Part shown: in pieces, positions 18,415 through 63,870 of the stretch
Numbering within the stretch: the stretch's first letter is position 1
Layout: the number at the start of each line of letters is the position of its first letter
Origin: Physcia stellaris
Taxonomy: Eukaryota > Ascomycota > Lecanoromycetes > Caliciales > Physciaceae
Direction: 5' to 3'
Assembly: GCA_018902385.1 (NCBI GenBank)
Contig: JABSSW010000012.1
Location: 1 to 64,000, forward strand
Length of the DNA stretch: 64,000 nt
Program-made: the position numbers and the translations under genes
The notes under the pieces: generated by a model
Databases searched by the model: none
Seen by the model: only the letters and a program-made list of their open reading frames with translations
What the model was told of the DNA's origin: nothing

Positions 18415-21400
18415 TCATAATTGCGACAGATAACATTTCATGCATTCGTCGAAATTGATCAATTTTTTGTGTTGTCGCAATCGCGTTTTGATTTTTTTGA
18501 TCGTGTCGTTGAAAAATTCAAACGTTTCGTGAAAACAATGATACATGTAATGTTTCGTTTTCTGATTCGTGAAATAACAATACGCGCATTTTTTTCGAAT
18601 TTGTTCGAAGATCGCGCGCAATTGACGAAAACGTTTTTGAATATCGCGTTGTTGTTGTTCATAACGTTCGACGATCGAACGATTGATGAATTGAAAATCG
18701 AATTGAAAAACGTAAACGACGATGAACGAAACGAAAAACGACGAAATCGCGACGACGAAAACAACAAAAAAAAAAATGAAAAATTTCGTCGTGAATGAAA
18801 TGTTGTTGCTCGAAATAAATGACGTGAAAATTGAAAAAAAAACAACATTTTGACGCGCGACGACGAAATTGAAAATCGCATTTTTCGCGATGAAAACGAA
18901 CGAGACGAACGAAATTGACGACGTCGTGAAAAAAAATTGATCGAAATCGATGAATTGATTTTGTCACGTCAAAACATGAATTTGATTGACGAAACGAATG
19001 AAAAATTGACAAATTTCGCAAAATTTTCGTTCGTTTCGCATTTTAAACGATTGTCGCGATCGTCGAAATAACGATTTAAAATGATTCGTTTGCAAATTCG
19101 TTGTCGAAACGATTGCATTCAAATTCGCAAATGCGATTTCATGACGTCGAACGCGATTTTTCGCGACGAGATTCGATTCAAAATCATGATCGTTTCATTG
19201 AATCGATCATTTCGTTTCGTTCGTTCGTTTTTTTGATCGTATTTCAGCAAAAACGAAACGTGTTCAAATGAATGACGTATCGCAAATGCGACACATCGAT
19301 TTTCATGTCAAACGCGTTGATCGTCACGAAAATGTTGAATTTCGATTGAATGACGAAACGTTGCAAAACGCAATTTTTGTTTTCGATTTCGTCGAAATAC
19401 GCGTCACATTTGATGAAAATCGTTCAAAATTGACAATTCGCGATTCAATTGCAATACATCAACATTTTTTCGCTCGATTTTAATTCGAAACGACAACGTT
19501 CAATCATGATCAACAATTCGTTTTTTTGATTCGCAAATGATCAAAATCGCGCACGTCACGTACGATAACAAATGTTGATTCGCGTGATGACGTTTCGAAA
19601 AAATTGAATTTTTGACGTTGTCATGCACATTTTTTTCGAAATCGAATTTTTTTTTGAAACGACAAAATGACGATCAACATCATCATTGAAATTTCGAATC
19701 GACAAAGTTTTTTCAATTTTTGCAAACGAAATCGAAATTGAAAATTGTCGTTCAACACGACGTGACATTCGTCGATGACGATGCGATTCAATCGTTTTTG
19801 ATTTCGAATGCGAATGAAAAAACAAACGAAAAAATCGTTTAAAACGAATTCGAATGTGATCAACATCAATTGAACATCGTTTGACGAATTGCGAAAATTT
19901 CATTCGCGACAACGAATGTCGACGTGTTGACATTTTCGTCGCAAATTTTGTCGCAATGCGATCAAAAAAACGATCATTTGTGTTTTGATTAATTTTTCGT
20001 TCACAAACGCACGTCGCGAAATTTACAATGATAATTTCGTCGAAATTGCAAAACGTCGATAACATGAACAGCAAACTTTTTTCAGTTTCGATGAGCATGA
20101 TGATCAGCACGAGCTTTTTGACGTAAATGATGACGTGAAGCGCGTCTCGTTGAGAAAATCGAAACGTGACATCGAGATTTCGCATCAGCGTGCGCAGTTG
20201 CTCGTTCAAATTCAACGAAAACGATTGTTTGAGTCGTTTGAACACGTTCGCGATCACGTCGTGTGATTCGTTTTCGACGTGTTTGCGTTTGTTCGAAACG
20301 ATCGAATTGATTTCAAACATTTCGAAATTCAACATGCGATGTCAATTTTCGTTGATCAAACGATATTTTTGTCGTTTGTTCGTCACGATTTCGAATGTTT
20401 CGCGAACGTTTCGCGCGTACACGTTGTCGACAACGTTCGAATCGTGAATCGTTTGCAAATTTTTCATTTCGTTTTTTTCATTTTCGTCATTTCAGTTTTT
20501 TTCGTTTTGATGATGATGATTTTTTTTTGCGCAAATATTTGCGATTGATGACGATGTTGATATTTCGTCAAAATGCAATCGTCAATTTTTGTTCGCATGT
20601 TTTTTCGTTGATTTGTTGCATTTTTCGATTGATGCGAATCGAATTTCATTTTTGATCATTGACATCGACATGTCAAAATTTTCATTTTCGAACAAATTTT
20701 TTGTTTTTGAAAACAAATTGCATCGTGTTTCACGTCGAACGAATCAATCAAACGATTCAAATCAACAACGCGTTCATTTCGCGCGACAAATAACGATAAA
20801 TCATTTTGAAATTGCGATCGATGTTGTAATTTTTGTGATATCGAATAATCAATTTCATTTGAATTTTTCGATTTCATCGAAATTGTATTCGAAAACGATG
20901 AACAAATTATGTTTTGTTTGAAAATCGAAATTTCATTCACACATGTTCAGAAATTCGAAATCGCGCGCGTTTTGTTTTCAAATTCATTGCATCAAAATGA
21001 TCAACAAATCGTGAAATCGATCGACGAAACGAAATCATTGATGACATTTGCGTGAATCATACATGTCGTTTCGTTCGATGAAAATTCGTTTGTCGAACAA
21101 ACGATTCATCAATCACGTGTTTTCGTTGATCGATCAATTGTTGCGTTTGTCATGAACGAAATTATATTCAATGTTTTTTCGCGTGAAATCGTTTCGTAAA
21201 CTCAATCATGAAATGACAAAAAATTCGATTTGTTTGCAATGCATCACGAATTTCAAAATTTCATACGTTTGATCTATCAAATCGCGTATCATTTTACGCA
21301 AATCGTTCATGTGAAATTCGATTTGTTTGTATCGAATCTGATTTTTCATTCAGTTCACGAAATCTGACGACGTGAAAATGTAGTGAATTTTCATGTCGTA

Positions 21401-22760
21401 CGCACGACGATCGAGTATTCACTGCATCGCGTCGTGATTGTCTCGAATCATGCAATCGTTGATCAATGCAATGTCGTAACTCATCAAATTCGACGCTTTC
21501 TTCGTGATGAAGTCACGAATGTCATGACAATTTTGAAAAATTGTTTGAATGATCATGAAACGAATCATTTTGATGACGTGAAACATGATGAACGAATATT
21601 CATGTGAAATGCGTCATTTTTGCGATTTGACGATCAAAACGATCATGACGCATAACATGAACAATTCGTATTTTTCGTGACGAACACGACGTTGAAACAA
21701 CGCAAAACAAAATCGCAAACACGTCAATTTTAATTCAATTAACGAAATTCATGATGTTTTGTCACAAACGAATTCGTGATTGCTGTTTTGATCGATCGTT
21801 TCGTTGAAAAAATTGAACAAACGATTGATGAAATTTTTCGCGATCAAAAAATCGCGATTGCGTGTTTGTTGCGCGTGTTGCATCATGACGTCGAAACAAC
21901 GTTGTTTTGTTTCGTCGAATTCGTAAATTGACATTTTTGATTTTTTGATTTTTTCATCAATCTGAATGCGAACGAAAAAGACGACGATTTGCTTTCACGA
22001 ACGTGCGTAATTTTTGAAGACGTGATCGATCATGTACGTCAACAACGACTCATATTTGATTTGATCGATTTCGTTGCGAATCGCTTTCACGCACAAATAA
22101 TATTCGACGTGTTTTTTGATCGTCTGTTGAAATTGTCGCAGCATTTGTTTCACGATTTCTCACATGATGACGATCAACGATTTCTCATCGACGATAAAAG
22201 TTTTCACGAAATTCATCAATTTCTGTCGATTCAATTCTTTGAGATAACGACGTCAATTCGTTTTTTTCAATCAAAGCTCGAACTCGATTTCAGTTTCACG
22301 ACTTTTCACACGTTCGACGAAAACAAGATTCATGACGACACGAACGACACGAGCTCGTTGCTTGATCATTGCGAACGCATTCACGAAAATCGCATCGTCG
22401 TTTGTTTCGTTCAACATTGTCGTCATCGAATTCATTCGAAAATAGTTGTTGTCATGATTCATTTTAAACATTTGTTGACATCGTGACATCGAAATTCACG
22501 ACGATAAATTTTGCTTTGTCGTGACGCGTTTTCGATGATTTTTGTGATGTTTGAAACAATGCGTTTTCATAATGATCGATATTAATGTTGTGTAAAAGCA
22601 AGCAAAATCGATTACACATAAATAAATTTGATCATGTATTTTCAATTCATGAATGAATTCGTTCAAATCATGAATAAACTCGAAAATTTCAATGTTTCGA
22701 ATTACATTCGTGCGAGCGAGCTGTTTCTGAATCAATTGAATTTGATTTTGAAACAAATTG
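18415..22760 (-). pseudogene. Decayed OrsD/recombinase/RecQ-helicase gene, relic 1
   Basis: Scattered minus-strand fragments line up in order with the better-preserved copy at 33-39 kb. From 5' to 3': an OrsD-like first finger (LCVIDFACF...KTHCFKHH, about 22.6 kb); a recombinase-region segment, HMNDLRKMIRDLIDQTYEIL (about 21.24 kb); the helicase P-loop region SQRDALHVII...IETEKSLLFML (20.09 kb); motif II IVIDECHVVLN (19.77 kb); motif V NAFDMKIDVSHLRYVIHL (19.3 kb); and a C-terminal zinc module CAYC...HYMYHC...CMKC (18621-18415). Fragments lie in different frames with many stops between them. P-loop glycines are glutamates (ETEKS for GxGKS) and the motif V glycines are D and K, so it cannot be an active ATPase. 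These losses are G-to-A changes at former GG sites. Family identity is established by motif order; the exact limits are uncertain. Confidence 0.72.
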
Positions 22761-23170
22761 TGTTTCGAAAAATTCGTGAAATGAATGACGACGTGTTTTA
22801 TTTTTACGACATATTCGCATTTGATGCAAATGATTACACGTCATTGCGAAAACACGATCAAATGTTCATTCATAATTTGCAATCGTTGATGAAAAACAAT
22901 GTTGCGTAAATATCAAAAAATGTGCAAATTTAAACGACGCGATGTCGCGACGCGATTGACGAAATGTCATTTTGATGATTTTTATCATATTTGTCAGTGT
23001 TTAATGTTTAAATAAATTAATGATGATGAATAAAACGATGTTATGAAATTGAAATGATGCAAAAACGTTGAACATGTCGCGTTTGAATACGCGATGACAA
23101 TGCGAAAACAACGATTCGATGTTTGACATTTGTTTTTCAATGTGATGTCAATCATGATCATGTCATCAAT
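22761..23170. other. Spacer between relic 1 and satellite
   Basis: AT-rich, with an ATGATG-rich patch and first, incomplete traces of the ~170-bp satellite near its right end. Nothing else seen. Confidence 0.4.
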
Positions 23171-33135: not shown

Positions 33136-33870
33136 TTAAAAATTGACAATGTATTTAAACGCTTGACTCGCTTCTAATTTTCGAAATAAAATTTTGTCTG
33201 ATAAATGATTTGCAAAACACGTTGATTCGTTATTGTCAACGTTGAAATTTTTAACGTTTTCTTCTTTCAAATCGTTTTTGTACGCGTGAATAACGTGTAA
33301 ATATGCAAATATATCTTGACATAAAACACATCGTTTCATTTTCGAATATTTCGATTTTCGACGAAAAATAGAACAAATTTTGAACGGCATAAAACATTCA
33401 GAACAAATCGTTTCGAATTTTCGATTCGAATATTTCAAATCGTTAAAAAGTCGATTCGATTGTTTCATCAATTCGTACGCAATTTTGAATTCTAATTTTT
33501 GAAATTTCTTGCATTTTGACGACGAATGTGAATGATAATTCGACGATTTGTATATTTTACAAAATATACAACGTGTGATCAATCGTTGAATTTTTGCGAC
33601 GATTTTCGAAAATTGTTCGTTGATTGTTTCGTTTTCGATTTGATTTTTCATGTGTTGTAATAAATCGTCGTCTATATCAAATTCGTCGTCGTTTTTATCG
33701 TTGTTTTCAAGAATTTCGTAACGATTTCGAGATTGATATAATTGTTGAAATTTATCGAATTTTCGTTCGTCGTCAGAATTATCAGAAAATTCAACATCGA
33801 TATCGTTTAATTTAACAACGATTTTTTTTTTGATATCAAATTTTCGTTTCAGAATTTTCGTCGAACAGAT
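33136..33870 (-). CDS. Cys-rich zinc-module protein (ORF E)
   Basis: An ATG at 33651 opens 171 aa ending at 33136, and the same frame is open upstream to about 33870, reading an acidic segment (DIDVEFSDNSDDERKFDKF). The ATG part has a zinc-like module: RCIFC, then SNYHSHSSSKC, then ICSECFMPFKIC, then RCVLCQ. The same layout (CxxC, H/C, CxxCxxPxxxC) occurs at the C-terminus of the helicase ORF (FCFNC...HETSNC...CYYCLLPQKLC), so the two are likely duplicates of one domain. The upstream frame overlaps the end of ORF D by about 20 bases in the -1 frame, which suggests D and E were, or are, one protein. Function unknown; nucleic-acid or protein binding by a zinc domain is an inference. Confidence 0.6.
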   Translation of the reverse strand: MCSTKILKRKFDIKKKIVVKLNDIDVEFSDNSDDERKFDKFQQLYQSRNRYEILENNDKNDDEFDIDDDLLQHMKNQIENETINEQFSKIVAKIQRLITRCIFCKIYKSSNYHSHSSSKCKKFQKLEFKIAYELMKQSNRLFNDLKYSNRKFETICSECFMPFKICSIFRRKSKYSKMKRCVLCQDIFAYLHVIHAYKNDLKEENVKNFNVDNNESTCFANHLSDKILFRKLEASQAFKYIVNF

Positions 33871-35156
33871 TTATCGTCGTTTGAATTTTCGTTTGAATTT
33901 TCGTTTGAATTTTCAATTGAATTTTCGATCGAATTCGCACTGTTTGACAATTGTATAAATTCGTCGTTGAATATTGCGTTATTTTCGTCATTTGTCATAT
34001 CAATTTGGCGTGTATTTTTGTTTTCATGTTCTTGAAATATTTTTTTCGTTTGTTGTTGATTTCGTAAATTTCGTTTTTGTTGTCGAATATTTTGCGTTGA
34101 ATATATTTCGCGACAACGTTTCGATTCTTCGTCGTTAATATTTTGATGAAATTCGTCGTTTTGAACGAAATCATCAATTGATAAAATGAAATTCATTGTT
34201 GCTGTTTTTTGTTTTCGACATTTTCGAACATATTTGTTGTATTCGTTTTGAACAAACGAATCGTACATGTTCAATGTTTTGTTTTTTCGAACAATTTCGT
34301 CGACAATTTCGTCGTCTGAAGACGATGATATATCGTATAAATTGTTGTCATCGATTATAAATTTCGATTGTTTTTTCGTAACGTTTTGAGTCGATTTTTT
34401 ATCGTGATAATAATCGTACGTTTTTTCGTCGATTAAATCGTAAAATTCTGAACTATTTACGAAATTTTCAATTGACATTATCATGTTTTGAATCATTGTT
34501 TTGTTTTTGACGTTTTTGCGTGCTTGTTTGATATATTCTTTGTATTTTTCTTTCACAATTTTGTCTTGTTTGTGAAAAGATACTGTTTCAAATTTTGAAT
34601 CGATACTTGAATTCGAAATCGAATCGTGACTCGATTTCTGTATAATATTTGACGAAATTTGATTGTTGTCACGTTGACTTATATTTAACGTTGATTCGAA
34701 TTGTAAATGCAATGAATCGTTTGATTTTTGACGCGATAAATCGTTTGATTCGTCGATTAATTCGTTGTTTGATTCGTTATTCGATTCGTCATTTAATTCG
34801 TCATTTAATTCGTCGTTTGATTCGTCGTTTGATTCGTCGTTTGATTCGTCATTTGATTCGTCGTTTGAATCGTCAATCGATTTGTTATTTGATTTATCGT
34901 TGAATTGAACGTTCGATTGTTTTTTTGATTCGTTATTTGAATTTTTCGATTGAATTCGTCGTTCTTTGTTAGAATTGTGAATTTTCATTAATTCTGAAAT
35001 TAATGTATCGAAATTTTGAATAAATTCGTTAATAATATGCATAGCGTGTATGCAATCTGTATCGAATATTGAAGATTTTTGACAAAGAAATTTCGAAAAC
35101 GTCAAAGAATTCGAATTCGAATTCGATTTCGAAAAATTCGTTAAATACGAATTCAT
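33849..35156 (-). CDS. Ser/Asn/Asp-rich protein with a duplicated ~60-aa unit (ORF D)
   Basis: The start taken is the ATG at 35156; an in-frame TTG at 35186 is less likely. It gives about 435 aa. Residues ~85-150 are a low-complexity tract of SNDE repeats encoded by TTCGTCGTT-type repeats on plus. The C-terminal half contains two related segments: YKEYIKQARKNVKNKT...SIENFVNSSEFYDLI...STQNVTKKQ, and YNKYVRKCRKQKTATM...SIDDFVQNDEFHQNI...STQNIRQQK. This is an internal duplication that survived heavy AT drift, which argues for protein-level constraint. It starts only ~58 bases after the stop of the helicase ORF, in the same frame, with two stops between. Function unknown. It may be the downstream part of one large gene with the helicase, or a companion gene in the same unit. 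Confidence 0.6.
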   Translation of the reverse strand: MNSYLTNFSKSNSNSNSLTFSKFLCQKSSIFDTDCIHAMHIINEFIQNFDTLISELMKIHNSNKERRIQSKNSNNESKKQSNVQFNDKSNNKSIDDSNDESNDESNDESNDESNDELNDELNDESNNESNNELIDESNDLSRQKSNDSLHLQFESTLNISQRDNNQISSNIIQKSSHDSISNSSIDSKFETVSFHKQDKIVKEKYKEYIKQARKNVKNKTMIQNMIMSIENFVNSSEFYDLIDEKTYDYYHDKKSTQNVTKKQSKFIIDDNNLYDISSSSDDEIVDEIVRKNKTLNMYDSFVQNEYNKYVRKCRKQKTATMNFILSIDDFVQNDEFHQNINDEESKRCREIYSTQNIRQQKRNLRNQQQTKKIFQEHENKNTRQIDMTNDENNAIFNDEFIQLSNSANSIENSIENSNENSNENSNDDKSVRRKF

Positions 35157-35213
35157 CAAAATTTTTTTCTTTATGACAAAACGCAATAGTTAACAAAACG
35201 TACAAAGACGTCG

Positions 35214-36914
35214 TTAAATATTGACATTTGTTATTTTTCGTGTATTGTTACACAATTTTTGCGGCAATAAACAATAATAACAAGAAAATTCTTCAACGAG
35301 TAATTTGTTTTTCTTGATTTCGTCTTTGATATTCTTTGCTAAAACTTGAAAATCGAAAAGTTTTTCATGTTTACAATTTGACGTTTCGTGTAAATGCATA
35401 TCGTCAAATTTTCTGTGACGAAAACAATTGAAACAAAAATTCGAAAATTTTTCGTAATATCGTAAAAAATTCGATTCTTCGTGAAAATTCGACGAAATTT
35501 TGGAAATTTCGTTTGTTTTTTGTTGTTGTAATTCGTTGAATCGTTTTTCACATAAATAACAAAGATTTTGATTGTGTGAACATTCTTCTGTTTTTTTATT
35601 GTCAAAATAATTGTCGAGAACGCGTCGTAAGCATTTTCTTTTTAATAAATATGCATGTAACATATTTCGATCGATTTGAAAAACATCGTTATCGTTTGTT
35701 AATTTTCGATCGATTTTGTTTTCTATTTTTCGTGATAGAAAATCGTAAGAAACGAAAAAAATCGATGTTGCATTCTCGTTATTACGACCGGCTCGTCCGA
35801 TTTGTTGATCGACAATAATCATTGATTCGTGTTTTGAAACGTGTAAAACGTATTTTATTGACGAATAATCGATTCCTTCGTTAAATGCTGAAGTAGCAAT
35901 TAAAATACGTTGATTATTGTCTTGAAAAAACGATTTTTGCGTCGATTCTTTGTCGTCTTGTGTCATTTTCGCGTGATAATACAATGTTTTGTATTTACGT
36001 GCGAAATCTTCACATTGTTGTTTTTCTTTTGTATATATCAATATTTTTTCGTCGTTTTTTAACGTATGATAAAGTTCTTGTTGAATACAATTTTTCAAAT
36101 CTTCAAATATATCGATATTTTGTTTATGTTCTCGAACGATATATTTGATATTATTTCGTGTCGTTGATGTGTGAAATAATTCGTATTTTTGAATCGAAAA
36201 TTGCGTGATTATTTCTTGTAAAATTTTTGTTGTGAAACTTGCTGATAAAAATATTAATTGAATTTTATACAAATTGATTTGTGACAGATGTTTCATGATA
36301 TATCGAAATTGTTTATGCAAAACAATCAAATGTGCTTCGTCGAAAAAAAGTCGAATATGTTTATTTTGTCGAATTTGTAACGATAAATAATCGTAAAACG
36401 TTGAATTTTCGAGTAAACTTTCGTAAGATATTAATTGCAAATTTGACGAATGTTGTGCGTTATTTTCGAATAATTCTGCGTGAATATTGAGCGTTTTCAA
36501 TCGTTGATTCATGTCGAATTTTAACGATACAAGTGGCAACGCTACAAAGTTAATTGTTTCTTTCGAAATAAATGACGACAACATAAATAACAGACTTTTT
36601 CCTGCTCCGGTTCCTGCTCGAAAAAACACATTCGAAACGTTATTTTCGATTGCTTTTATTGATTCGAATTGTGCGTTTGATTTAAACGTTGCGTTTGAAT
36701 TTTTGAAAAATCGTTGTAACGATAAATTTAAATCAAGAACGTTTTCGTTAACATCTCGTGTTAATAACGACGTATTGAAAGATATTTCATTTGACGTTTT
36801 TAATTTTTTGTTTGTTGTTGTAACGTTGTCGTCGTCGTCGTTTGAATTTGAACGAATACGTTTCGTAATCGAATTTCCGTTTAAATTAAAAAAAATTCTT
36901 GATATTTTTTGCAA
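35214..36914 (-). CDS. RecQ-type DEAH helicase domain (ORF C)
   Basis: A superfamily 2 helicase core with all key motifs intact over 566 codons: P-loop GTGAGKS (residues 101-107), DEAH (192-195), LSAS (motif III, 223-226), ILIYTK (motif IV, 291-296), TSAFNEGIDY (motif V, 341-350) and QQIGRAGR (motif VI, 370-377). After it come KCLRRVLDNYF and a zinc module, FCFNC...C...CYYCLLPQKLC (about 493-555). Helicases with this layout are known in fungi as large subtelomeric RecQ-like proteins (telomere-linked helicase type), expected to unwind DNA in the nucleus using ATP. GG and CC dinucleotides, nearly absent around it, are kept exactly where the P-loop and GRAGR are encoded (about 36595-36615 and 35785-35800). 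The frame is open upstream of the listed TTG start and overlaps the preceding fragment in a -1 relation, so the true protein start is upstream. Helicase identity is certain; the complete gene model is not. Confidence 0.9.
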   Translation of the reverse strand: MQKISRIFFNLNGNSITKRIRSNSNDDDDNVTTTNKKLKTSNEISFNTSLLTRDVNENVLDLNLSLQRFFKNSNATFKSNAQFESIKAIENNVSNVFFRAGTGAGKSLLFMLSSFISKETINFVALPLVSLKFDMNQRLKTLNIHAELFENNAQHSSNLQLISYESLLENSTFYDYLSLQIRQNKHIRLFFDEAHLIVLHKQFRYIMKHLSQINLYKIQLIFLSASFTTKILQEIITQFSIQKYELFHTSTTRNNIKYIVREHKQNIDIFEDLKNCIQQELYHTLKNDEKILIYTKEKQQCEDFARKYKTLYYHAKMTQDDKESTQKSFFQDNNQRILIATSAFNEGIDYSSIKYVLHVSKHESMIIVDQQIGRAGRNNENATSIFFVSYDFLSRKIENKIDRKLTNDNDVFQIDRNMLHAYLLKRKCLRRVLDNYFDNKKTEECSHNQNLCYLCEKRFNELQQQKTNEISKISSNFHEESNFLRYYEKFSNFCFNCFRHRKFDDMHLHETSNCKHEKLFDFQVLAKNIKDEIKKNKLLVEEFSCYYCLLPQKLCNNTRKITNVNI

Positions 36915-37203
36915 AATTTCAACGCTTCGAGTTGTGCATTTTTCGATGTATTTATTAACGTATGTTGATCGCGTCCGTAATGAAATTGATTCGTTTTACG
37001 AGTATGATTCGCTTGTACAAATTGTATTGATTCGTCGTTGTCAGAATTCGACGAATCGTTGTCATTGTAATTTGAAATCAAAATTCGTTCACGAATAATA
37101 TACGTCATAACTTGACGTAACATCGCGATTCGTAACGGCGTTTGAATATAATGTAACGATTTTAATTTAATAAAATCAGACATTGATTCAGATGTGAATG
37201 TTT
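36881..37203 (-). CDS. Recombinase-like C-terminal catalytic fragment (B2)
   Basis: A ~107-codon frame reads NNDKTFTSESMSDFIKLKSL, then TPLRIAMLRQVMTYIIRERI, then QANHTRKTNQFHYGRD, then LEALKFCKKYQEFF. In tyrosine recombinases the last catalytic His and the nucleophilic Tyr lie nine residues apart (as in GHSS...YTH); here H and Y in NHTRKTNQFHY have the same spacing. It continues ORF B but in the +1 frame: B stops at TAA in CGA AAA TAA while this frame reads across it. It also overlaps the upstream end of the helicase ORF. The ordering matches the large fungal recombinase-helicase proteins. Whether the frame change is a real indel, a sequencing error or an unusual decoding event cannot be told here. 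Confidence 0.6.
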
Positions 37204-37208
37204 TGTCG

Positions 37209-38036
37209 TTATTTTCGAATAAATGAATCGATGATAACGTTTTCGAATCTAAATAACGAATTTGAAAAATTCGTAAAAGATTGAACGAACAGTAAATAAT
37301 AAACGATAATTTTTGAAACGCGTTCGTTACAAAATCGAATATTTTTGCTGTTTTTTCGTTGTTTCGATTGATTTTTGTGATATCGTAAATTAAACATGAT
37401 TAATTTCGATGTTTCGTCGTAAAAAACTTCGCGTAATCCCGTATGTAACGAATTTTTGAATTTTGTTTTGATAATTTCTTCGCCACGAGCAAACGCTCCT
37501 GTTGTTAAATAAATAACAATTAATAACAATTTTAAAAAGTCTTTTCGATGTTGTAAATATGTCGAAATTTGATTGTTATTAATTGTTGTATTTTTGCCGT
37601 GAAAAAAACGATGAAATTCAGTCGTTGTTTTGAAAAAACGTCGAATAAGAAATTGTTTTAAATGCGAAAAATCTTGATTTTTCGTGACGTGTTCAACGAA
37701 ATAAAATTGATTTTTTTGTTCGTGTAAATCGTCATAAATTTCGTTAAGATTAATTGACGTTTCGAGTTCGTTTTTGTCGATTTGTAACAAATTTTCGAAT
37801 AATTGTCGTTCAAGATCGTCGATTAATTGATTGAAAAATGTTCGTAATTTGTTGATTGAAATTTCAACGTTATCGTATCGAAGAATATCGTTAGAAACGT
37901 TTGTAATTTTAGAATTTCTCGTTTCGTTCATCGAGATTTTTCGCGTTAAAGCTCGATAATTTTGTATTGTTTCGAAACAATTTCGTGAATCGTTTGATAC
38001 GTGTTCGAGTAAATTTTCGTGAAAAAACGTTGACAA
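37209..38036 (-). CDS. Tyrosine-recombinase-like domain (ORF B)
   Basis: 275 codons with FETIQNYRALTRKIS, VEISINKLRTFFNQLIDDLE, FLIRRFFKTTTEF, TTGAFARGEEIIKTKFKNS, LREVFYDETSKLIMFNLRYH and VSKIIVYYLLF in order. The ARGEE arginine followed by RYHKNQ matches, from memory of the family, the ARGTE...RYHKG region in large fungal proteins that carry an OrsD finger before it and a RecQ helicase after it. That region looks like the first catalytic box of a tyrosine recombinase. The TTG at 38036 is not a true start; coding sense continues upstream in another frame (37909-38148). Recombinase activity is inference; family membership is better supported. Confidence 0.62.
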   Translation of the reverse strand: MSTFFHENLLEHVSNDSRNCFETIQNYRALTRKISMNETRNSKITNVSNDILRYDNVEISINKLRTFFNQLIDDLERQLFENLLQIDKNELETSINLNEIYDDLHEQKNQFYFVEHVTKNQDFSHLKQFLIRRFFKTTTEFHRFFHGKNTTINNNQISTYLQHRKDFLKLLLIVIYLTTGAFARGEEIIKTKFKNSLHTGLREVFYDETSKLIMFNLRYHKNQSKQRKNSKNIRFCNERVSKIIVYYLLFVQSFTNFSNSLFRFENVIIDSFIRK

Positions 38037-38530
38037 CGTTGAAATCGTTTTCGTCGTCGTCGTTTGCTTGATCGTTTCGATAATTGACGTATAACATGTA
38101 AAAATATCGAAGCATGTAAAGAAGTTTGCTGCATAATTTTTCGATCATTGACGTTTTGATAAACGTTTTATCAACAGAACTTATTGATTTGCAAACAAAA
38201 ACGTGACAACAATACTGTCAAACGTTGCGTGTTTGTCGAAGTCGTTTTTGTTCTGTTTTTTGACATAACAATTCGAACGTTAATCGAATAATAGACGTTT
38301 TAATTATTTGTTTAAATTCGTTTGTTGTTTTTCGTCGTTACTTTCGTTGATTCGAGACAAAAGTTGCGTAATTAATCGAATAATTTTCGAAATTTTCGTT
38401 GTAATAATCGGTTGCGAATAATTGATTTTTCAATTTCGATCGAATAATAAATATAACAAATTAAATCTGCAAACGTCGAATAATAATCTTGAGTTGACGA
38501 CGTATTTTGCAATTCTTGAAACGAATTCAT
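37909..38530 (-). CDS. Frame-shifted linker between OrsD and recombinase parts
   Basis: Coding sense passes through several frames here. 38530-38372 reads MNSFQELQNTSSTQDYYSTF then ADLICYIYY, the expected segment after the OrsD fingers. Around 38290-38240 a second frame reads SIIRLTFELLCQK. 38224-38170 returns to the first frame (QRLTVLLSRFCLQINKF). 38180-37909 reads VDKTFIKTSMIEKLCSKLLY and continues into ORF B after another shift. I searched for GTAAGT-type introns and found none that would join these pieces. The simplest reading is several single-base indels in A/T homopolymers, real or from assembly. Confidence 0.45.
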
Positions 38531-38537
38531 TTTTTTG

Positions 38538-39407
38538 TTATGTAAACGCAATATCGTTTGCTTTATCTGTATGTAACAATTGTTTTAATCTGATATCGAA
38601 TTTTTGAATTAATTCGTTTGATTCGATTGCAAGTTCAATCGTTAATTCGTGTAAACAACGTAATTGTTCGTGTTGTTTCAAGAATTTTGTATTGACAGAT
38701 TGTATTAAATCGTCAATATTTTTGTTTTCGAGATATTCGTGAAAATATGATTGTTGTAAAAACAAATTGTATTCTTTGAATTGCGTCGTTTCGTTTCGTT
38801 GAATCGATTGCATTTTGATATCGTTTAATTGTTGATTATATTCGTTGATTTGATTTGTTTCGTCGTTTGAAAAATTTGTTTGCAACGTTGAATTTTGACG
38901 TGTAACGTTAATTTGATTGTCGTTGAATAAAACAGCGAAATATTTTCGATATCGATTTGTTGTAAAAATTTGTGCGTAAATATTCGAATCGTAAAATGAT
39001 TCTGTTTTTGTCGTATTTTTAAGTTTATGTTCTTTGTTACAATGCATACGCATTGTTTTGTTGTCTCGTACAACATACGAACAACTTTTACATGAAAAAG
39101 CGTCGTTATATGTGTATAAAAACGGAAAAAAATGCTTGAAATTTTCCGGAATTTGAATATCTTTCGTTGAAACAAGTGAATAATTTTTCAATTCGTTGAT
39201 AATTGATTTTTTTTCGTTGAAAGTTAAATTTCGATGTTGAACGTTAGAATTGAAATGAGTAATCGATTTGTCGTTATTTTCGTTGTTTATAACAACGTGA
39301 CATTTTGTACAAAAAACGATTTTGAATTCTTCATTGTAATAAAGAAAATCGTTAATTTGTTGAACGTTGTCAATAACGTTAGAATTGTTAATATCGTAAA
39401 AAGACAT
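38538..39407 (-). CDS. OrsD-like double zinc-finger N-terminal domain (ORF A)
   Basis: The ATG at 39407 (MSFYDINNSNVIDN) is preferred; the open frame upstream to 39608 only translates an 8-bp microsatellite. The protein (~289 aa) has FCTKCHVVINN...SITHFNSNVQH as finger 1 and AFSCKSCSYVVRDNKTMRMH then CNKEH as finger 2, followed by QIFTTNRYRKYFAVLF. This pattern is that of the OrsD/DUF3505 domain found at the N-terminus of large fungal helicase proteins. It probably binds DNA (inference). The frame ends at TAA 38540-38538, and the expected next segment follows immediately in the +1 frame, with the two frames both open for at least 14 codons. The A-T-rich repeat upstream (39440-39935) would be its promoter region. 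Confidence 0.7.
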   Translation of the reverse strand: MSFYDINNSNVIDNVQQINDFLYYNEEFKIVFCTKCHVVINNENNDKSITHFNSNVQHRNLTFNEKKSIINELKNYSLVSTKDIQIPENFKHFFPFLYTYNDAFSCKSCSYVVRDNKTMRMHCNKEHKLKNTTKTESFYDSNIYAQIFTTNRYRKYFAVLFNDNQINVTRQNSTLQTNFSNDETNQINEYNQQLNDIKMQSIQRNETTQFKEYNLFLQQSYFHEYLENKNIDDLIQSVNTKFLKQHEQLRCLHELTIELAIESNELIQKFDIRLKQLLHTDKANDIAFT

Positions 39408-39434: not shown

Positions 39435-39625
39435 AACAAATAGAAATAACAACGTAAACAATAAAACAATAAAACAATAAAACAATAAAACAATAAAACA
39501 ATAAAACAATAAAACAATAAAACAATAAAACAATAAAACAATAAACAATAAACAATAAAACAATAAACAAAAAACAATAAAACAATATAACAATAAACAA
39601 TAAAACAATAAAACAATGAAAAAAC
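39435..39625. repeat. 8-bp microsatellite (ACAATAAA)n
   Basis: About 20 imperfect copies of ACAATAAA, with shortened units near 39540-39600, lie just upstream of the ATG of ORF A. The minus strand is open through it in all frames as LLFYCFIV peptides, which wrongly extend ORF A. Confidence 0.9.
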
Positions 39626-39932: not shown

Positions 39933-40016
39933 ATGATTGAAAAGAAATTACAAAGAAAATTTCGTTGTTTATATATTGCAAAAAAATAAAATTTTATTAT
40001 TAAATTTATTAAATTT

Positions 40017-41300
40017 ATTCGTGCATGAATATTTATTTATTCATGCACGAATATTTATTTATTCATGCACGAATATTTATTTATTCATGCACGAATATTT
40101 ATTTATTCATGCACGAATTTTTTATTCGTAAAATTAAATTTGATTCGTGTAAAATTATTAAATTTATTGTTGAAAATATTTATTTATTCATGCATGAATA
40201 TTTATTTATTCATGCACGAATATTTATTTATTCATGCAAAAGTTAATTTGAATTAAATTTATTATTCATGCATGAATATTTATTTATTCATGCACGAATA
40301 TTTATTTATTCGTGCATGAATTAAATTGATTCGTGTAAAAATTAAATTTGTATTGTTAAAATTAATAAATTTATTCGTGCACGAATATTTATTTATTCGT
40401 GCATGAATTAAATTTTAATCGTGCATGAATTAAATTATATTCGTGCATGAATTAAAATATATTCGTGCATGAATTAAATTTATTCAATTTATATTGTAAA
40501 TATTATTAAATTTATTCGTGCATGAATTAAATTAATTATATTGTGCATGAATTAAATTATATTCGTGCATGAATTAAATTATATTCGTGCATGAATTAAA
40601 TTATATTCGTGCATCAATTAAATTATATTCGTGCATGAATTAAATTATATTCGTGCATCAATTAAATTATTTATTCGTGTATCAATTAAATTATATTCGT
40701 GCATGAATTAAATTATATTCGTGCATGAATATTTATTTAAATTATATTTCTATGAATAAATATTATTCAATTTATTCGTGCATGAATTAAATTATATTCG
40801 TGCATGAATTAAATTTATTCGTGCATGAATTAAATTTTATTCGTGCATCAATTAAATTATATTATTCGTGCATGAATAAAATTTATTCGTGCATAAATAA
40901 ATTTATATTTGTAAATATTATTCAATTTATTCGTGCATGAATTAAATTATATTTGTGCATGAATTAAAAATATTCGTGCATGAATTAAATTTTATTCGTG
41001 CATCAATTAAATTTTATTCGTGCATGAATATTTATTTAATCGTGCATGAATTAAAAATTTTATTGTAAATATTATTCAATTTATTCGTGCATGAATTAAA
41101 TTATATTCGTGCATGAATTAAAAATTATATTCATGCATGAATTAAATTATATTCGTGTATGAATTAAATTATATTCGTGCATGAATTAAATTATATTCGT
41201 GCATGAATATTTATTTAATCGTGCATGAATAAATTTCTATTGTAAATAAATTCAATTTATTCGTGCATGAATAAAAATATTTATTTATGAATTAATTTTA
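40017..41300. repeat. Array of ~50 quasi-palindromes, ~22-bp period
   Basis: The core TTCRTGCAYGAA recurs from TTCGTGCATGAATATTTATT at 40019 to about 41270. The left third has TATTTATTTATTCATGCACG spacing; the rest has ATTCGTGCATGAATTAAATT. Period is 22 bp in the regular stretches, about two helical turns. Between cores the DNA is almost only A and T, so nearly every G or C lies in a core. Some cores are TGCATCAA or TGTATGAA variants. Interruptions such as TAAATTTATATTGTAAATAT occur every 250-300 bp. Confidence 0.92.
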
Positions 41301-43340: not shown

Positions 43341-45500
43341 TTCAATAACGTTTGTTAGTTATATTTCTGCTATCTAAATATACACGAATAAAAAAGAAAA
43401 AAATTGAAATTTGTTGCATTCAATCTATTCATTTTCAATTTTAATTCAATCAATTCTTTTCGCTCGTCATTTCATTCAGCATTTCATTTTCGAATTCGAT
43501 TGTCAATCATCAATTCATTTCAAGTCGCGATTGCGAAAAATTTTCGATTCACGATTGCATTCATTTGCTTTTTTGTCATTTTTTGATACGCGAAAATGTG
43601 ATCAATGTTCGCATGTTTGCATGCGATTCGTTTCGTGTCATAATTGTTTTTTTGCATCATTGTTTTCACATACGTTTTTTTGTTGATTCGTCGATTGATG
43701 CGATCGCGTCAATTTTGTTTGCATACATTGCATTGTTGACATTGTTGACAAGTTTCGACTTGTTTCAAATGTTCAAATAAACATTTTTGAAAATTGCACG
43801 TCGTTTTCGTGCAAACGAGAAATTCAAAAAATTCGAAATATTGTTCGCAATGAATCGACGACGTCGAAAAATTTGAAAATCAAAAAATTTTGAATATCGA
43901 ATACAACAATGTCAACAAACGTATTTTTTTCATCATTTTTTTTTAAAAAATCGTTAACAATTTCGTTTTCATTTTTATCAAATTTTTCATCATCAATGAA
44001 TGCATGTTGTCGAAATATTTTTTCGTTTTCGAAATCAATGATAAACGAATTGAAATAATTTGAAAAATTGTTGACATTTGTGTCATCATCGAATGTAAAA
44101 AAACGACGATTGACATTGAAATTTGAACGATTGTTAAAAAAAAAAATTGCACGATTGTTGACAACGATTGTTGCAATTGCAATCTGATTGTTGAAAACGA
44201 TGAAAAAATCATTATCAAAAGAAAAAATCGCACGATCGCGAAAAAGAAAAAAAACGCGATTGTTGTCAAAAACGCGTTTGTTGACAAAAAAACGATTGTT
44301 GAAAAAAAAATCGAATTGCGATGCGTTCAAATCATCGTCGAAAATCTTCTCGACAATAAAATAATAATGAACAAAAATTGCGCGCAATAAATTAATTTGA
44401 ATCAATGCATTCAAATATTGCACGAAATTTATATTCACGAAATTGTCAATTTCAAAAAATTCGAATTTCAAAATTGTTCACATTTGCAAAGAAATTTCAT
44501 CGAAATCGCGTGAAATTGACGTATTTTGTACGCATTTCATTGAAATCAACGTTCAATTTATCGCATGCAATATTCAATTGTTGTCATGTTGACATTCAAA
44601 AGTCGATAATATGAACATTTTTTTGATAACGTTCAAACACATGTTTTATTATCATTTTTTTTTGAATTCGAATTGCGCGCAACGTGAATAACGAATCGTT
44701 TGCAAACAAACAGAAAATTTCGAACGAATTGAAATTTTTTCGTATTCATCGTCATTGATGTTCACAAAAATGAAATCGAACATGATGTTAAAAAAATTGC
44801 GTGTAAACAAATGTTAAAAAACAATTGCGTAAAAAAAAAAAATTGTTTCGCAAAAATTGTTTGAGAAAAATTGCGTGAAAAAAATTTGCTGAAAAGAATT
44901 GCGTGTCAAACGAATCAAAAATGAATCAATGCAAACGAAACGATCGAAAAAAATATTGCAAACAATGTCAATTGCATGCGTTTCAAATTCGTCATATCGT
45001 CAATTCAAAAATCATCGAACATTGAATACGATCGCATTGAATACGATCGCATTGAATACGATCGCAAAATCGCGCATTCAACATTTTCATCGTATTCAAT
45101 GATTGCATTTTAAACATCATCAACAATGTTCGCGAAATTCAAAAAACGTTTCATGTTATCAATGTATTTATCAACAAAAATTTGAAAACAACAATGTTTG
45201 AAATGAACAAATGCAAATAAACAAATAAGTGAAAATGTGAAAAAAAATTGAAAACAAAAATGAAAAAAGCAAAAATGAAAATAATTCATCGCACGCGACA
45301 AATGTCGATGCATGCGATTATTCGTCAAATTAATCGTCAACAATCACGTGATTTTCGATTTCGAAAATCGCACGATACGTGAAATCAATTATTAAAAATT
45401 TCGTCGATAAAAAATTCGCAATATTCGAAAAAAACAAAAACAAATTACATGCAAAAACATTGAATGCAATTTCTAAAAATACAAATTTAACAACAAACGA
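43341..45500. other. AT-rich spacer with overlapping ORFs
   Basis: A minus ORF at 44471-43824 (215 aa) is F/N/D-rich and unlike any family I know. A plus frame near 43575-43690 reads KCDQCSHVC...CHNCFF, a zinc-knuckle-like cysteine pattern without other support. A 15-bp triplet GAATACGATCGCATT sits at 45023-45067. None is called as a gene. Confidence 0.4.
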
Positions 45501-45539
45501 ATTGCAAAAAAAAATTGCAAGAAAAAATTGAACAAAACG

Positions 45540-46205
45540 AAAATATTGCACGAAAATATTGCAAAAAAAAATTGCAAAGAAAAATTGCGAACAAAAATTG
45601 CAAACAAAAATTGCGAACAAAAATTGCGAACAAAAATTGCGAACAAAAATTGCACGAAAATATTGCAAAAAAAAATTGCGAACAAAAATTGCGAACAAAA
45701 ATTGCACGAAAATATTGCACGAAAATATTGCAAAAAAAAATTGCGAACAAAAATTGCGAACAAAAATTGCGAACAAAAATTGCGAACAAAAATTGCGAAC
45801 AAAAATTGCAAAAAAAGATTGCAAAAAAAAATTGCACGAAAATATTGCAAACAAAAATTGCGAACAAAAATTACGAACAAAAATTGCAAAAAAAAATTGC
45901 AAAAAAAAATTGCACGAAAATATTGCAAACAAAAATTGCGAACAAAAATTGCACGAAAAATTTGCAAACAATGATTGCACGTAAAATTTGCAAACAAAAT
46001 TTGCACGTAATGATTGATAAAAAAATAAACAAAAAATTCGCGATTTAGAAAAATCAAAAATGATTGTAAACAAAAATTGCGAACAAAAATTGCACGTAAA
46101 ATTTGCAAACAATGATTGCACGTAAAATTTGCAAACAAAATTTGCACGTAATGATTGATAAAAAAATAAACAAAAAATTCGCGATTTAGAAAAATCAAAA
46201 ATGAT
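45540..46205. repeat. 15-bp minisatellite (GCGAACAAAAATTGC) with duplicated tail
   Basis: About 30 units of AAAAATTGCGAACAA alternate with TTGCACGAAAATATTGCA variants up to about 45955. The tail 45960-46075 is repeated at 46088-46205 (both have CACGTAATGATTGATAAAAA and AATTCGCGATTTAG). Because 15 is a multiple of three, five frames stay open, including a 318-codon minus frame (46286-45330) and plus frames of 141-177 codons. None looks like a gene. Confidence 0.88.
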
Positions 46206-46421
46206 TGCAAAAAAAAATTGCGAACAACGATCGCAAACAATTATTGCAAACATTCGTTCGACAAATAAATCGTCAATGTTGCACAAACGAAATCGTCGTC
46301 GACACGATCAAATTTTTTAACGTGAAATTCATGTCATCGAATGTTTATTCGACAATCGATTTCGAATATTTATTGACGCAACGTTTTCAATAAAATTTTT
46401 AATCAACATCATTATTGAAAT

Positions 46422-47905: not shown

Positions 47906-50900
47906 TCATGCAACGATTCGACTTTCGAAAAGTTCGAAATTTTTTTTTTTCGCGACGATCGCATTGCATGCAAATTTGACGACAACGTCGTATGTTTCAC
48001 GTTTTTCGTTTTCGAGTTCGTTGTCGAAAAACTCATCAAAATTTTTCGATTCAATTGAAGAAATTTGATCGAAAAAAGCAAAAAAAATTGACACAAAAAT
48101 CGAAATCAATTTTAAAACGTCGAAATCAATCAATTGATTCGACGCAAACACAATGAATAACGTCGTGAATCGTGTGTTAACAAACAAAAAAATAATTGCA
48201 TACAAAAAAATGTTCGAACGCAACGAAATATTTGAACGTTTCGCAATGATCGCATGTCGTTTTGATGACGAAAATGAAAAAACGAAAAATCGAAACGAAA
48301 TTTGAAAAGCGACATCGAAAACATTTTGAACAAATCGTGAAAACGAGAAAAATGAATTGTTAACAATTGAACGACGAAAAATGTCGATGACAATGTCGCG
48401 AAAAAAATTGATCGAAATTTCGTGATGAAAATTGATTGATTTCGTTGAAAATTGACGAAAACGATGATGACAAAATTCGCATAACATTCGTTTAATGAAA
48501 TTATTCATGAATTGATTGCACGCAATGTCAACATTTTCGTCAAAATAAACAATCAAAAATTCACGATAACATTGTTGATTTTGAAAAATTTCGTCATGCG
48601 AACACAATCGTTGTTCAAAAAATCAATTCGATATTTCGAATTTCATTGAACAAATCAACGATTTGTCAACAATGTCAAACAAATTGTCGACATATCGTTT
48701 CGATCGATTCGTTTTGTTTTTTGTTCGTAATTGACAAAATCGTCGAAAACATTCAAATGAATGATTTTACGAATGAAAAAATAATGAACATCAACATTGA
48801 AAAACGACGTCGTTACAAAAAAAAAATCGATTAATTTTTGATTTCATGCAATCATCATTCGAATTCGATTTTCGCGCGAGAAAATTTCATGATAAAATTC
48901 GCAATCGATGATTTTTGTTAAAATTTTATTCATTTGTTTGTTGCGAACGTAAACGATATCACGCGCAATTGATATTTGATCGAAAAAAACGATTGTTTTT
49001 CAAATTTCAATGTTTTGCATGCAAATTTTAATCGTTTCGTTGATCAATGAATTAATCAATTCAAACGAACGATCGTTCGACGACGAAATTGTTTGCACGC
49101 AATATTGAAAATTAAATCGATCATTGTTGAAACGCATTATATCGCATCGAATGAAATGCAACGTTTGTTTGAAATTCATTTCGACGATGAACGACAATGT
49201 GATCGTCATGCAAACGAACGAGACAAAAATTTCACGAAATTGAAATATGAAAAACATTTTTTGTCGATAATAATTGATTATCAATAATTGATAAATTTCG
49301 TTCAGAACAATACGATTCAAACGATCGTTGACATGCAAAAATTGCGCAAATTCAACGAAATCAAAAATGACGACGTTCTCAATATTCACGAAAAGCAACA
49401 ATAATATTGCATGAAATTGATTTCGAATGAAAAAAAAATCGTAATTTATGCAATGAATGTTTCATTGTTTGCATCGTTTTTGAAAATTTTGCTTCAACGC
49501 GATCAATGACACGATGATAATGATAATTTTCGTTCGAAACAATTGAAAAAAATCACAAACAACAATGTTTTGTCGTTGTCAGTAAACATCATCACGAACA
49601 TTTTCGAACGATTGCGTGCAATCATCAACAATTCATTGCGTTGATTCGTGTTGCGAAATTTTGTTTGCGAATCGAACAATTGTTTCATGCATTGTTCAAT
49701 GATCGATCAAATTCATAATTCATTTCGTATTTTCAAATTAAAATTTCGATTTTGACGTTTAAAATAAATCGAAATCAAATCGCGATTGAAAAATCGTTTG
49801 TGAAATTTTGTCATATTGCGAATCGCATGCAATTGAACGATTTTTTCGTGTTATCGAATATTGATTTTCAAATAGTTCGTTAACAATTCATTCGTAAAAT
49901 CAAAAAACAAATCAACATCGTTGTCATAAATTATGCGATTGATGAAAAGAATGTGATTTATTTGCATGACATGAATTCTGTTCGCGTTGTTTTGTTTGAA
50001 AATTGACAAATTAATTTTCTCAAAATCGTCGTCGCAATTCGAATTCGAATCATGAATTGCATGCGATGTTTGTGCGTTGAAAATTTTCGAAATTTCATAC
50101 ATTTTGCATGCAAAATCTCGCAACAATCGTTTGTCGACGCATACAAACATATAACGATATTGTTTGATGATGATGACGAAATTCAACGTCAACGTGATTT
50201 GTCGTTTCATGACAATGTCGAATTGATCGACGTTTCATATTTGTTCACGTTTTTCAAACAAATGTTCACGATCAATCGAATATTGCATGCAAAAACAAAA
50301 AAAAAAAACAAACGACGAAACGTAAATGAAATATCGCATCAACAATTCATTCACTTTCGACAACAGAAAACGCGCAATGAAACGAAAATCGATTTTTCAT
50401 GCAATTTTGTGATAATCATTGACGACGATCATCAATTTATGCGACAAATACAAATTGCGTGCAATTTCTTGATTGCATCAAATCGCGTCAATCAGTTTTT
50501 TACGACGAAAAAACAAATTTGAAATTTGATATATCAACACATTGAACATGCGCAAAAATCGTTGAATTGCTAACAAATACGAATTGATTTTGAATTGTCG
50601 AATTCGAAATTGAGTTTTTGTTTTGAAAAATTTTCTTCGCAAAATTGAAATGTTTTGAAAACGTTTGTACAATCAATCACGAATTGCATTCAATTGATTG
50701 CGTGAATCATCGAAAAAGAATTTGTCGAATTTGTTGTCGAAATAATTGTCAACAAAATTGCTCATTGAATACAAAGACGTTTCATGCAAATTCAATAACA
50801 AATCATTTTCGAAAATGACATTAATCGAATGAATCATAACGCTGATACTTTGTCGTCATTGCATGAAATTCAAATTGACATTTTGATGAGAAATTTGCAT

Positions 50901-61000: not shown

Positions 61001-61514
61001 CGAATACTTCTGACAGGTGTCTGAAGTACTTCGGTACCTTCTCCATTATACGTTCAAGGATCGGCTTGACCTGCTCGTGCTCCAGAATCTCCTTGGTCAT
61101 GGCGGCAACCTCCAACGATTCAGGATCTGCCCGCAATGCCTTGAGTGCGGAGTCGATTTGGTTGATCGTAATGGAAAAGCATTGCACTCCTTGCTTTCGA
61201 CCTTTGGAGCCGGCGAGTAGGCAGAAGGAGGCCGCACCAACCATCGCGATATCCACCGAATCGTCTGGGTCCAGCCCCGGGGGTGGAGGGATCTCGGGTT
61301 GTTGTTTCTTGACCTTCCAACGCTTGTTGCGTTGCCTTTTCAAGTCCCTTTTCTTGACGGATGTCGCTTTCGTAGCCGCTGTGGTATCAATTTCTGAATG
61401 ATCTGGCTCAACGGCGGACGGCTCGTCATCTTGATCGGCTTCCGAGTGAGTAGAGCAATCGGAGCACTCTGAATCGGATACGTCTGACTCGTCCTGTACG
61501 TAGGGCGCTGGGGG
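58059..61514 (-). CDS. pol: Pol: reverse transcriptase, RNase H, integrase, chromodomain
   Basis: The frame is open from just after the TAG at 61517-61515 to 58059 (about 1151 aa). Counted from the TTG at 61343: RT with LDIISAF (D231) and YLDD (293-296); RNase H with LETDSSD (D442), YDKELLAI (E484) and TDHKGLETF (D511); integrase zinc finger H662, H669, C699, C702; integrase core D732 (TDISMDF), D795 (TSDRGPQF), E831 (DGQTERANQD) with 35 residues between the last two; GPY motif LGPYKVLER; chromodomain about 1030-1085 (EWEVDDILESRYHYNR). All catalytic residues are present. The acidic 57-codon stretch after the TAG has no early ATG, so RT must be made with the upstream frames. The chromodomain suggests integration into heterochromatin, which fits its position. 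Confidence 0.95.
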   Translation of the reverse strand, partial: PPAPYVQDESDVSDSECSDCSTHSEADQDDEPSAVEPDHSEIDTTAATKATSVKKRDLKRQRNKRWKVKKQQPEIPPPPGLDPDDSVDIAMVGAASFCLLAGSKGRKQGVQCFSITINQIDSALKALRADPESLEVAAMTKEILEHEQVKPILERIMEKVPKYFRHLSEVFDPQKATELPPHRTYDHKIELLSDSSTLPRSRVYPLSELKLQKLKEYLEDNLQKGFIVPSQAAYASPVLFAVKPNGQLRLCVDYRRLNHITKRNRYPIPLIEETLARVQGCKYLTKLDIISAFNKLRMSEESEELTTFVTSMGSYKYRVLPFGLTNGPASWQHYMNDLLFSFLNDFCQVYLDDILIYSKSKKEHIVHVRKVLERLKEAGLQVDIEKCEFFKKEVAFLGVILSVDGLRMDPKKIEVIVNWERPTNLKEVQAFVGFVNFYRRFIRDFSKKARALTRMTKKLVGFEWTAEAEEAFNLLKKTVTEAPILRHYDRTKQAILETDSSDYVNAGVLSQYDDEGVLHPVAFYSRNMIPAECNYEIYDKELLAIIRCLEHWRPELEGTEEPVKIFTDHKGLETFMTSKKLTPRQARWAETLSEFNIAIQFQSGAQNVKADALTRMPGSRPKDDTDERHQYREQVLLTPERLEIHAMETDEPIYERVLAANRADDDCTAYREAVGQGLTSVDGVDLRGCIEKDGALYRGDRLWVPADAPLLVDLLREIHEPPASGHPGFNRMEDLIRRDYYWPNMRKAVRRYVRNCHGCQRTKASRDRKNGLLTPLAIPLQRWTDISMDFITGLPDAHGHNAICTIIDRLSKERHYVPCTADDEGTSAEATAKILINYVFRTHGLPSSITSDRGPQFISLVWQAFCRILGIKCKLSTAFHPETDGQTERANQDIERQLRQYCNYMQNDWDVWLPMAEFADNNAVSATTGLSPFFINKGFHPRMSFSPDPTSYATTRERLLAAKAEDITGTMQNILNYVRDHAEVAQKRMTAQANKHRKAVEYAEGDFVFLDRRNIKTARPSDKLDDKKLGPYKVLERRGNSYRLELPETMRIYDVFHCWLLRKDPRDPLEGQTNEPPGPVIVNENPEWEVDDILESRYHYNRLQYRANWSGWPHDRTWYYADNGEFDNARDVVDDFHRTHPTAAGPEPSRR

Positions 61515-63619: not shown

Positions 63620-63870
63620 AGCTGGGGATGGAGAATTGGAGGTGGTAAAAGGGAAGGGGGTTAATCGTGCCAGTTCTCGTCTTCTATCGTCGATTGCGTG
63701 AAGGTTCGGCTTGTTACTTCACGGCTTTCGTCAGTTGCCTCGTCAGGAGGGCTTTTGGGTCGTTTGCCTGGTCAGCAGGGCTTTTCGTCGTTTGCCTCGT
63801 CAGGAGGGCTTAGTCGGTCTGGGGTCTTATTTTTGGGCGCTCGCGTACCACGACGAGCGGTAGGAATTGG
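63620..63870 (-). other. Retrotransposon 5' leader with short tandem repeats
   Basis: About 250 bp between the primer site and the gag ATG. On plus, CGTCAGGAGGGCTTTT and CGTTTGCCTCGTCAG occur in three near-repeated ~30-bp units at 63733-63812. A packaging or structural role is possible but not shown. Confidence 0.6.

What the first reader, a model, noticed from the sequence alone, without database searches (positions are those of the whole stretch)
33136..39407. OrsD finger, tyrosine-recombinase-like domain and RecQ helicase in one locus: candidate self-mobilising unit
Seen: in one strand and in order, an OrsD-like double finger, a region with ARGEE ... RYHK ... LRQVMTYI ... NHTRKTNQFHY, a complete SF2/RecQ helicase, and zinc modules. 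The H-to-Y spacing of nine matches tyrosine recombinases. Established: large fungal subtelomeric helicases with an N-terminal OrsD domain exist, and tyrosine recombinases drive fungal elements such as Cryptons and Starships. Inference: the recombinase-like part could move or amplify the unit, which would explain three collinear copies in 35 kb. I do not know a named element class with this architecture.
Basis: partly seen in the sequence, partly recalled or inferred. Interest (0 to 1): 0.85.

Follow-up and report, generated by a model that had tools for sequence, protein, structure and literature searches.

The report
Hidden recombinase in fungal telomere-linked helicase
A repeated gene near fungal chromosome ends, known only as a helicase, also carries an unrecognised DNA cut-and-rejoin (tyrosine recombinase-like) domain whose predicted fold and active-site residues are conserved in distant fungi, which suggests how these genes might rework chromosome ends; that the gene moves itself has not been shown.

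Summary
On the minus strand at 39407-33136 lies a frame-broken copy of a large protein: OrsD zinc fingers, a middle domain, a RecQ helicase, zinc modules. Another copy in the same fungal genome reads 1763 residues without a stop. The middle domain looks like a tyrosine recombinase/type IB topoisomerase; Pfam shows none in the seven family proteins scanned whole. Across 131 family proteins R, K, R, H and Y are highly conserved (89-99% of occupied cells), Y ranks first of 325 columns, and H-to-Y spacing is nine in 117 of 117. A model of a close relative's domain (pLDDT 87, pTM 0.87) matches Xer, Cre, Tn1549 integrase and Top1; 45 of 50 listed entries have this fold. Recombinase and helicase co-diverged (r 0.90). 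Two relatives are named tlh2: probably the fungal telomere-linked helicase family, with a domain not reported in the papers seen. Self-mobilisation is not shown: 16 of 17 copies near contig ends point towards that end, homology runs past the gene, no element ends were found. Subtelomeric exchange explains the copies at least as well; insertion polymorphism was untestable.

The parts
33136..39407 (-). OrsD - tyrosine recombinase - RecQ gene copy (frame-broken; ATG at 39407, stop at 33136)
39024..39347 (-). OrsD domain (double C2H2-type finger)
   Evidence: Pfam PF12013 E 7.5e-10; same place
36881..37721 (-). tyrosine recombinase-like catalytic domain, in two frame pieces
   Evidence: profile matches E 6.8e-51 (37721-37167) and 2.2e-38 (37411-36881)
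37485..37487 (-). box I arginine codon (FARGEE; R718 in P0001 numbering); conserved E three residues on
37374..37376 (-). beta-hairpin lysine codon (LRYHKNQ; K755)
37115..37117 (-). box II arginine codon (MLRQV; R842); the usual box II histidine is absent (A)
37004..37006 (-). histidine codon (NHTRKT; H879)
36977..36979 (-). candidate nucleophile tyrosine codon (FHYG; Y888), nine residues after the histidine
   Evidence: most conserved of 325 columns
35781..36674 (-). RecQ-type SF2 helicase core
   Evidence: Pfam DEAD and Helicase_C; the C67 copy matches BLM at E 6.6e-16
35250..35590 (-). cysteine-rich modules after the helicase core
   Evidence: read from sequence; cysteines conserved between P0001 and P0002
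33136..33870 (-). C-terminal cysteine-rich module
   Evidence: read from sequence; no Pfam match over its cut-off
39456..39621 (+). (AAACAATA)n tract 5' of the gene; the C53 copy joins other DNA inside this tract
49833..50738 (-). relic copy: recombinase domain with stops
   Evidence: profile E 6.4e-16
20355..21161 (-). relic copy: recombinase domain, weak
   Evidence: profile E 4.2e-4; OrsD of a relic at 22541-22858

Best explanation
The locus encodes a fungal telomere-linked (subtelomeric) RecQ helicase whose middle part is an active-type tyrosine recombinase/TopIB-like domain. Shown by computation: predicted fold, residue conservation, fixed OrsD-recombinase-RecQ order, co-divergence, purifying selection among copies, position and polarity near contig ends. 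Inferred: OrsD fingers bind DNA; the recombinase nicks and rejoins one strand through a covalent Tyr-DNA link; the RecQ motor unwinds DNA so that strands of repeated chromosome-end DNA can be exchanged or copied. The gene spreads mainly as part of subtelomeric blocks passed between chromosome ends with polarity kept, a traffic the enzyme may promote. That it is a free-standing transposon is possible but less likely on this evidence.
Confidence: 0.66

Rival explanations
1. The protein is the transposase of a new class of tyrosine-recombinase element (recombinase-helicase mobile unit): it cuts its unit out as a circle or copies it and inserts it at preferred, oriented repeats at chromosome ends.
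For: Catalytic-type residues under selection; many copies per genome (19 OrsD places in this genome; 44 of 120 listed relatives are named Pisolithus, 22 of them P. marmoratus); two copies lie far from contig ends (C5, C6). An oriented target repeat could also give the polarity.
Against: No terminal sequence or common end found among copies; homologous blocks extend kilobases past the gene; polarity 16 of 17; the one 5' junction looked at in detail lies inside a simple repeat.
Confidence: 0.25
2. The recombinase domain is a catalytically inactive remnant kept as a DNA-binding platform; only the RecQ helicase acts.
For: Classical box II histidine lost in most members; 12 of 108 ungapped family proteins lack one of R, K, R, H, Y.
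Against: The chemistry residues are among the best conserved columns (Y ranks 1 of 325, K 6, H 8, first R 14, second R 33). TopIB enzymes lack that histidine too (recalled).
Confidence: 0.12
3. The motif match is chance in a repetitive, AT-rich protein; there is no recombinase domain.
For: No Pfam or NCBIfam integrase match; no Foldseek match at E <= 0.001.
Against: Conservation in distant basidiomycete relatives, two models of different proteins, from overlapping alignments, with the same fold on top, reversed-sequence control 0 of 151.
Confidence: 0.03

Closest known systems
Telomere-linked RecQ helicases of fungi (TLH/tlh2, UTASa/UTASb of Ustilago maydis, recQ gene of Metarhizium)
   Same: RecQ helicase; OrsD domain reported for U. 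maydis UTASb (PMC10532341, passages) and a Metarhizium recQ gene (PMC11457142, passage); subtelomeric multicopy position; two relatives here carry the name tlh2
Xer/Cre/integrase tyrosine recombinases
   Same: Predicted fold, R-K-R-H-Y residues, R-xx-E, H-Y spacing nine (the classical spacing is recalled)
   Different: Box II histidine mostly replaced by N/Q/S/A; fused to OrsD fingers and a RecQ helicase; no Pfam integrase match
Type IB topoisomerases
   Different: Helicase fusion, subtelomeric multicopy genes; Xer ranks higher
Starship captains (DUF3435) and Cryptons
   Same: Fungal tyrosine recombinases (recalled; Starships also in the search listing)
   Different: No DUF3435 match; they lack a RecQ helicase (recalled); no cargo or element ends seen here
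AcademH and KolobokH transposons
   Same: Transposons that encode a helicase (PMC10799480, passages)
   Different: Theirs is a DDE-type transposase (recalled); here the partner has the tyrosine recombinase fold
Protelomerases (TelA)
   Different: This genome has TTAGGG telomeres; no hairpin ends known

Membership tests
DNA breaking-rejoining superfamily (tyrosine recombinases and type IB topoisomerases) | Catalytic-domain fold | tested here: met
DNA breaking-rejoining superfamily (tyrosine recombinases and type IB topoisomerases) | Conserved R, K, R, H/W and nucleophile Y (set recalled) | tested here: met
   present in the window copy
DNA breaking-rejoining superfamily (tyrosine recombinases and type IB topoisomerases) | Strand cleavage through a covalent Tyr-DNA link | not testable with these tools
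   needs biochemistry
Classical phage-integrase-type tyrosine recombinases (R-HxxR-Y) | Histidine of the HxxR box | tested here: not met
   H in 4 of 119 occupied; N in 68; A in P0001 and in the window's reading IAMLRQ
Classical phage-integrase-type tyrosine recombinases (R-HxxR-Y) | Match to the Pfam integrase model | tested here: not met
   none listed at E <= 1 for P0002, P0010, P0016, P0035, P0045, P0063 and the window pieces, nor at E <= 10 for P0001
Fungal telomere-linked helicase (TLH) | RecQ-family helicase | tested here: met
   BLM, WRN and RecQ1 chains
Fungal telomere-linked helicase (TLH) | Multicopy near chromosome ends | tested here: met
   17 of 19 OrsD places within 100 kb of a contig end, on 11 ends; of these ends only that of C34 is seen to bear telomere repeats
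Fungal telomere-linked helicase (TLH) | Directly next to telomere repeats | tested here: inconclusive
   no match within 5 kb of 6 telomere-bearing ends; on C34 OrsD places lie 27 and 64 kb in
Fungal telomere-linked helicase (TLH) | Sequence relation to the described TLH proteins of S. pombe, U. maydis or Magnaporthe | not tested
   these sequences were not at hand
Starship captain | DUF3435 domain | tested here: not met
   no DUF3435 match listed in Pfam scans
Starship captain | First gene of a large element with defined ends and empty sites | not testable with these tools
   no second strain held
Crypton | Recombinase element without a helicase (recalled) | tested here: not met
   helicase in the same open frame of P0001; 88 of 131 family proteins have recombinase and helicase (53 OYH + 35 YH)

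The most novel reading that the evidence does not exclude
Telomere-linked helicases across fungi are recombinase-helicase enzymes: a so far unnamed class of tyrosine recombinase whose helicase partner lets it move or copy chromosome-end DNA, so that the 'helicase genes' of subtelomeres are self-spreading elements that also serve as a telomerase-independent way to rebuild chromosome ends.
Probability: 0.3. Interest if true: 0.9.

Novelty: new variant of a known kind. Interest (0 to 1): 0.72.

Why it matters
Why fungi keep many helicase genes at chromosome ends is, to my knowledge, unsettled. A conserved strand-cutting domain in the same protein gives a concrete, testable activity: change one tyrosine and look at subtelomere exchange and at survivors without telomerase (several such genes are up-regulated in U. 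maydis telomerase-minus strains, PMC10532341, passages). It would also add a helicase-coupled branch to the tyrosine recombinases and a domain that Pfam lacks.

Tried and rejected
Rejected: chance motif (conservation, fold, reversed control). Rejected: classical integrase, DUF3435 captain or DDE helicase transposon by domain content. Not found: defined element ends. 5' homology of copies stops at pair-specific places; the C53 copy ends in the simple repeat, and the C12 copy that seemed to share that end does not on alignment. I first took the DNA beside the C53 copy for single-copy; a check showed that part of it (about 0.3 kb, 75% alike) recurs in L017 and L022 and, shorter, beside the C34 telomere (L040), so I call it only other DNA. 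3' homology runs through tandem repeats for kilobases; the C10 copy leaves the common sequence about 65 bases past the stop (estimated through C62). RIP as cause of the AT-richness: the two indices give no sign. Frame breaks: 71 frame-shifting differences in nine aligned copies, 51 of one base; a few recur in two or three copies (alignment-dependent); decay or assembly error, not decided. Entries not of the superfamily: SroF, YopR (2), C3PO (2). A viral-library search gave only weak matches (none at E <= 0.001). Literature: ten searches; listings plus passages of five papers (PMC10532341, PMC8381367, PMC12857005, PMC10799480, PMC11457142) were seen; none of what I saw reports a recombinase domain in these helicases, which is limited to this library and these terms. 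The Fusarium tlh paper (Curr Genet 2024) is not held.

Rows dropped before counts: 12 relatives, mostly with incomplete domains, and P0001 were left out of alignment A2 (118 rows); A3 and A4 used 55 and 49 rows, chosen after I had seen the residue table, with short proteins and intact motifs preferred for the folded protein, so their invariance leans towards the claim; one search is the count without that choice. Gapped cells are excluded from residue counts as stated. In dN/dS codons with gaps were skipped and pairs with under 30 codons or dS of 0.02 or less not printed. One search used 59 of 131 with both domains near full length. One search reports 124 matches, 120 listed.

Full report
What is there. 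The window is the first 64 kb of contig C12 of a 44 Mb genome, fungal by its content, with TTAGGG repeats on six contig ends, C12 not among them. The finding is correct about content and spacing; the gene is on the minus strand (39407 to 33136) and its frame is broken into seven pieces of 100 residues or more. OrsD (Pfam E 7.5e-10), DEAD and Helicase_C are found in the right order; the pieces of the middle region have no Pfam match better than E 0.18.

Better copies. The genome holds 19 OrsD places (a lower bound). The copy on C67 is open for 1763 residues (P0001) and aligns along its length with the window gene (89.7% DNA identity). Its helicase is of the RecQ family (BLM E 6.6e-16). Among eight copies covering the middle region, dN/dS is 0.16-0.52 in 28 of 28 pairs and no in-frame stop occurs in compared codons, so the protein has been under selection. 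Frame-shifting differences number 71 in nine copies, 51 of one base, a few shared by two or three copies.

Relatives. A search with the middle region found one relative at 40% (P0002); P0002 led to ten further OrsD/RecQ-type relatives among 30 new matches, the other 20 being ordinary RecQ-type helicases; a Pisolithus relative gave 124 matches, 120 listed, the named ones fungal and mostly mushroom-forming (44 Pisolithus), among them two proteins named tlh2. A profile of the middle domain from 12 sequences matches 131 of 131 of these family proteins, its own 12 included, and none of the 20 others. As the family was gathered partly by this region, the first number is expected; the controls and the residue pattern carry the weight. 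The precomputed domain columns of the 130 database proteins list only OrsD and helicase-type families or nothing.

Is it a tyrosine recombinase? Alignment of 131 gives, at occupied cells, R 113/120, K 127/130, R 106/119, H 118/121, Y 122/123; the E three residues after the first R is 118/119. The tyrosine is the most conserved of 325 columns; K is 6th, H 8th, first R 14th, second R 33rd. H to Y is nine in 117/117. In chosen alignments of 55 and 49 sequences the only invariant columns are R, K and Y; in 118 sequences only K is invariant, H and Y reach 90%, the two R do not. The histidine of the classical HxxR box is absent in most (H in 4 of 119), as in type IB topoisomerases (recalled). The full R-K-R-H-Y set is in 96 of 108 ungapped sequences.

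Architecture. Order OrsD-recombinase-helicase has no exception (53 OYH, 38 OY, 35 YH, 5 Y only). Distances of recombinase and helicase domains correlate at r 0.90 over 59 proteins, 0 of 999 permutations as high, so the fusion is co-inherited and probably old.

How the copies spread. 17 of 19 OrsD places lie within 100 kb of a contig end, and 16 of these point towards that end (two-sided p 2.7e-4; by contig end 10 of 11, p 0.012; relics are included and copies are not fully independent). Homology between copies runs kilobases beyond the gene through tandem repeats; one copy (C53) meets other DNA, itself partly repeated, inside the (ATTGTTTT)n tract. The N-terminal part is more diverged between C67 or C62 and the other copies (dS 0.38-0.53) than the middle (0.05-0.17), a mosaic. 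This is what exchange between chromosome ends gives; an oriented integration target would give the same polarity, so a recombinase role is not excluded. Insertion polymorphism was not testable.

The other two copies in the window are old relics, with stops, that still match the domain profile, one strongly and one weakly.

Known work. U. maydis telomere-linked sequences with OrsD (PMC10532341, passages) and a Metarhizium recQ gene with OrsD (PMC11457142, passage) suggest the family is known; co-localised tlh genes are described in Fusarium (PMC12857005, passages). In ten searches of the held library nothing I saw reports a recombinase domain in them (call numbers in Tried and rejected); most papers were seen only as titles and abstract starts.

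Verdict. Identity of the domain: about 0.93. Catalytic competence: about 0.8. Promotion of exchange or copying at chromosome ends: about 0.5. Free-standing transposon: about 0.25.

Noticed in passing
window 58059-63718 (-): Open Ty3/gypsy-type gag and pol frames in GC-rich DNA (about 0.53) beside the AT-rich subtelomeric block.
   Followed up: no
window 1-57000: AT-rich DNA with CpG odds 3.3 and TpA odds 0.37 but no RIP signature by the usual indices; an unusual base pattern without explanation.
   Followed up: partly
L009 and L010 against other copies, OrsD and linker part: N-terminal part more diverged (dS 0.38-0.53) than the recombinase part (0.05-0.17): mosaic copies or diversifying finger domains.
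   Followed up: partly
L012 1213-1485; L017, L022; L040 67-205: A repeat beside the C53 copy recurs in two other loci and right next to the telomere repeats of C34.
   Followed up: no
window 40013-41285 and 45500-46227: Arrays of 22-base and 13-base tandem repeats around the gene block.
   Followed up: no
L014 (C5:954000-963900): Two N-terminal gene pieces in inverted orientation more than 200 kb from a contig end.
   Followed up: no
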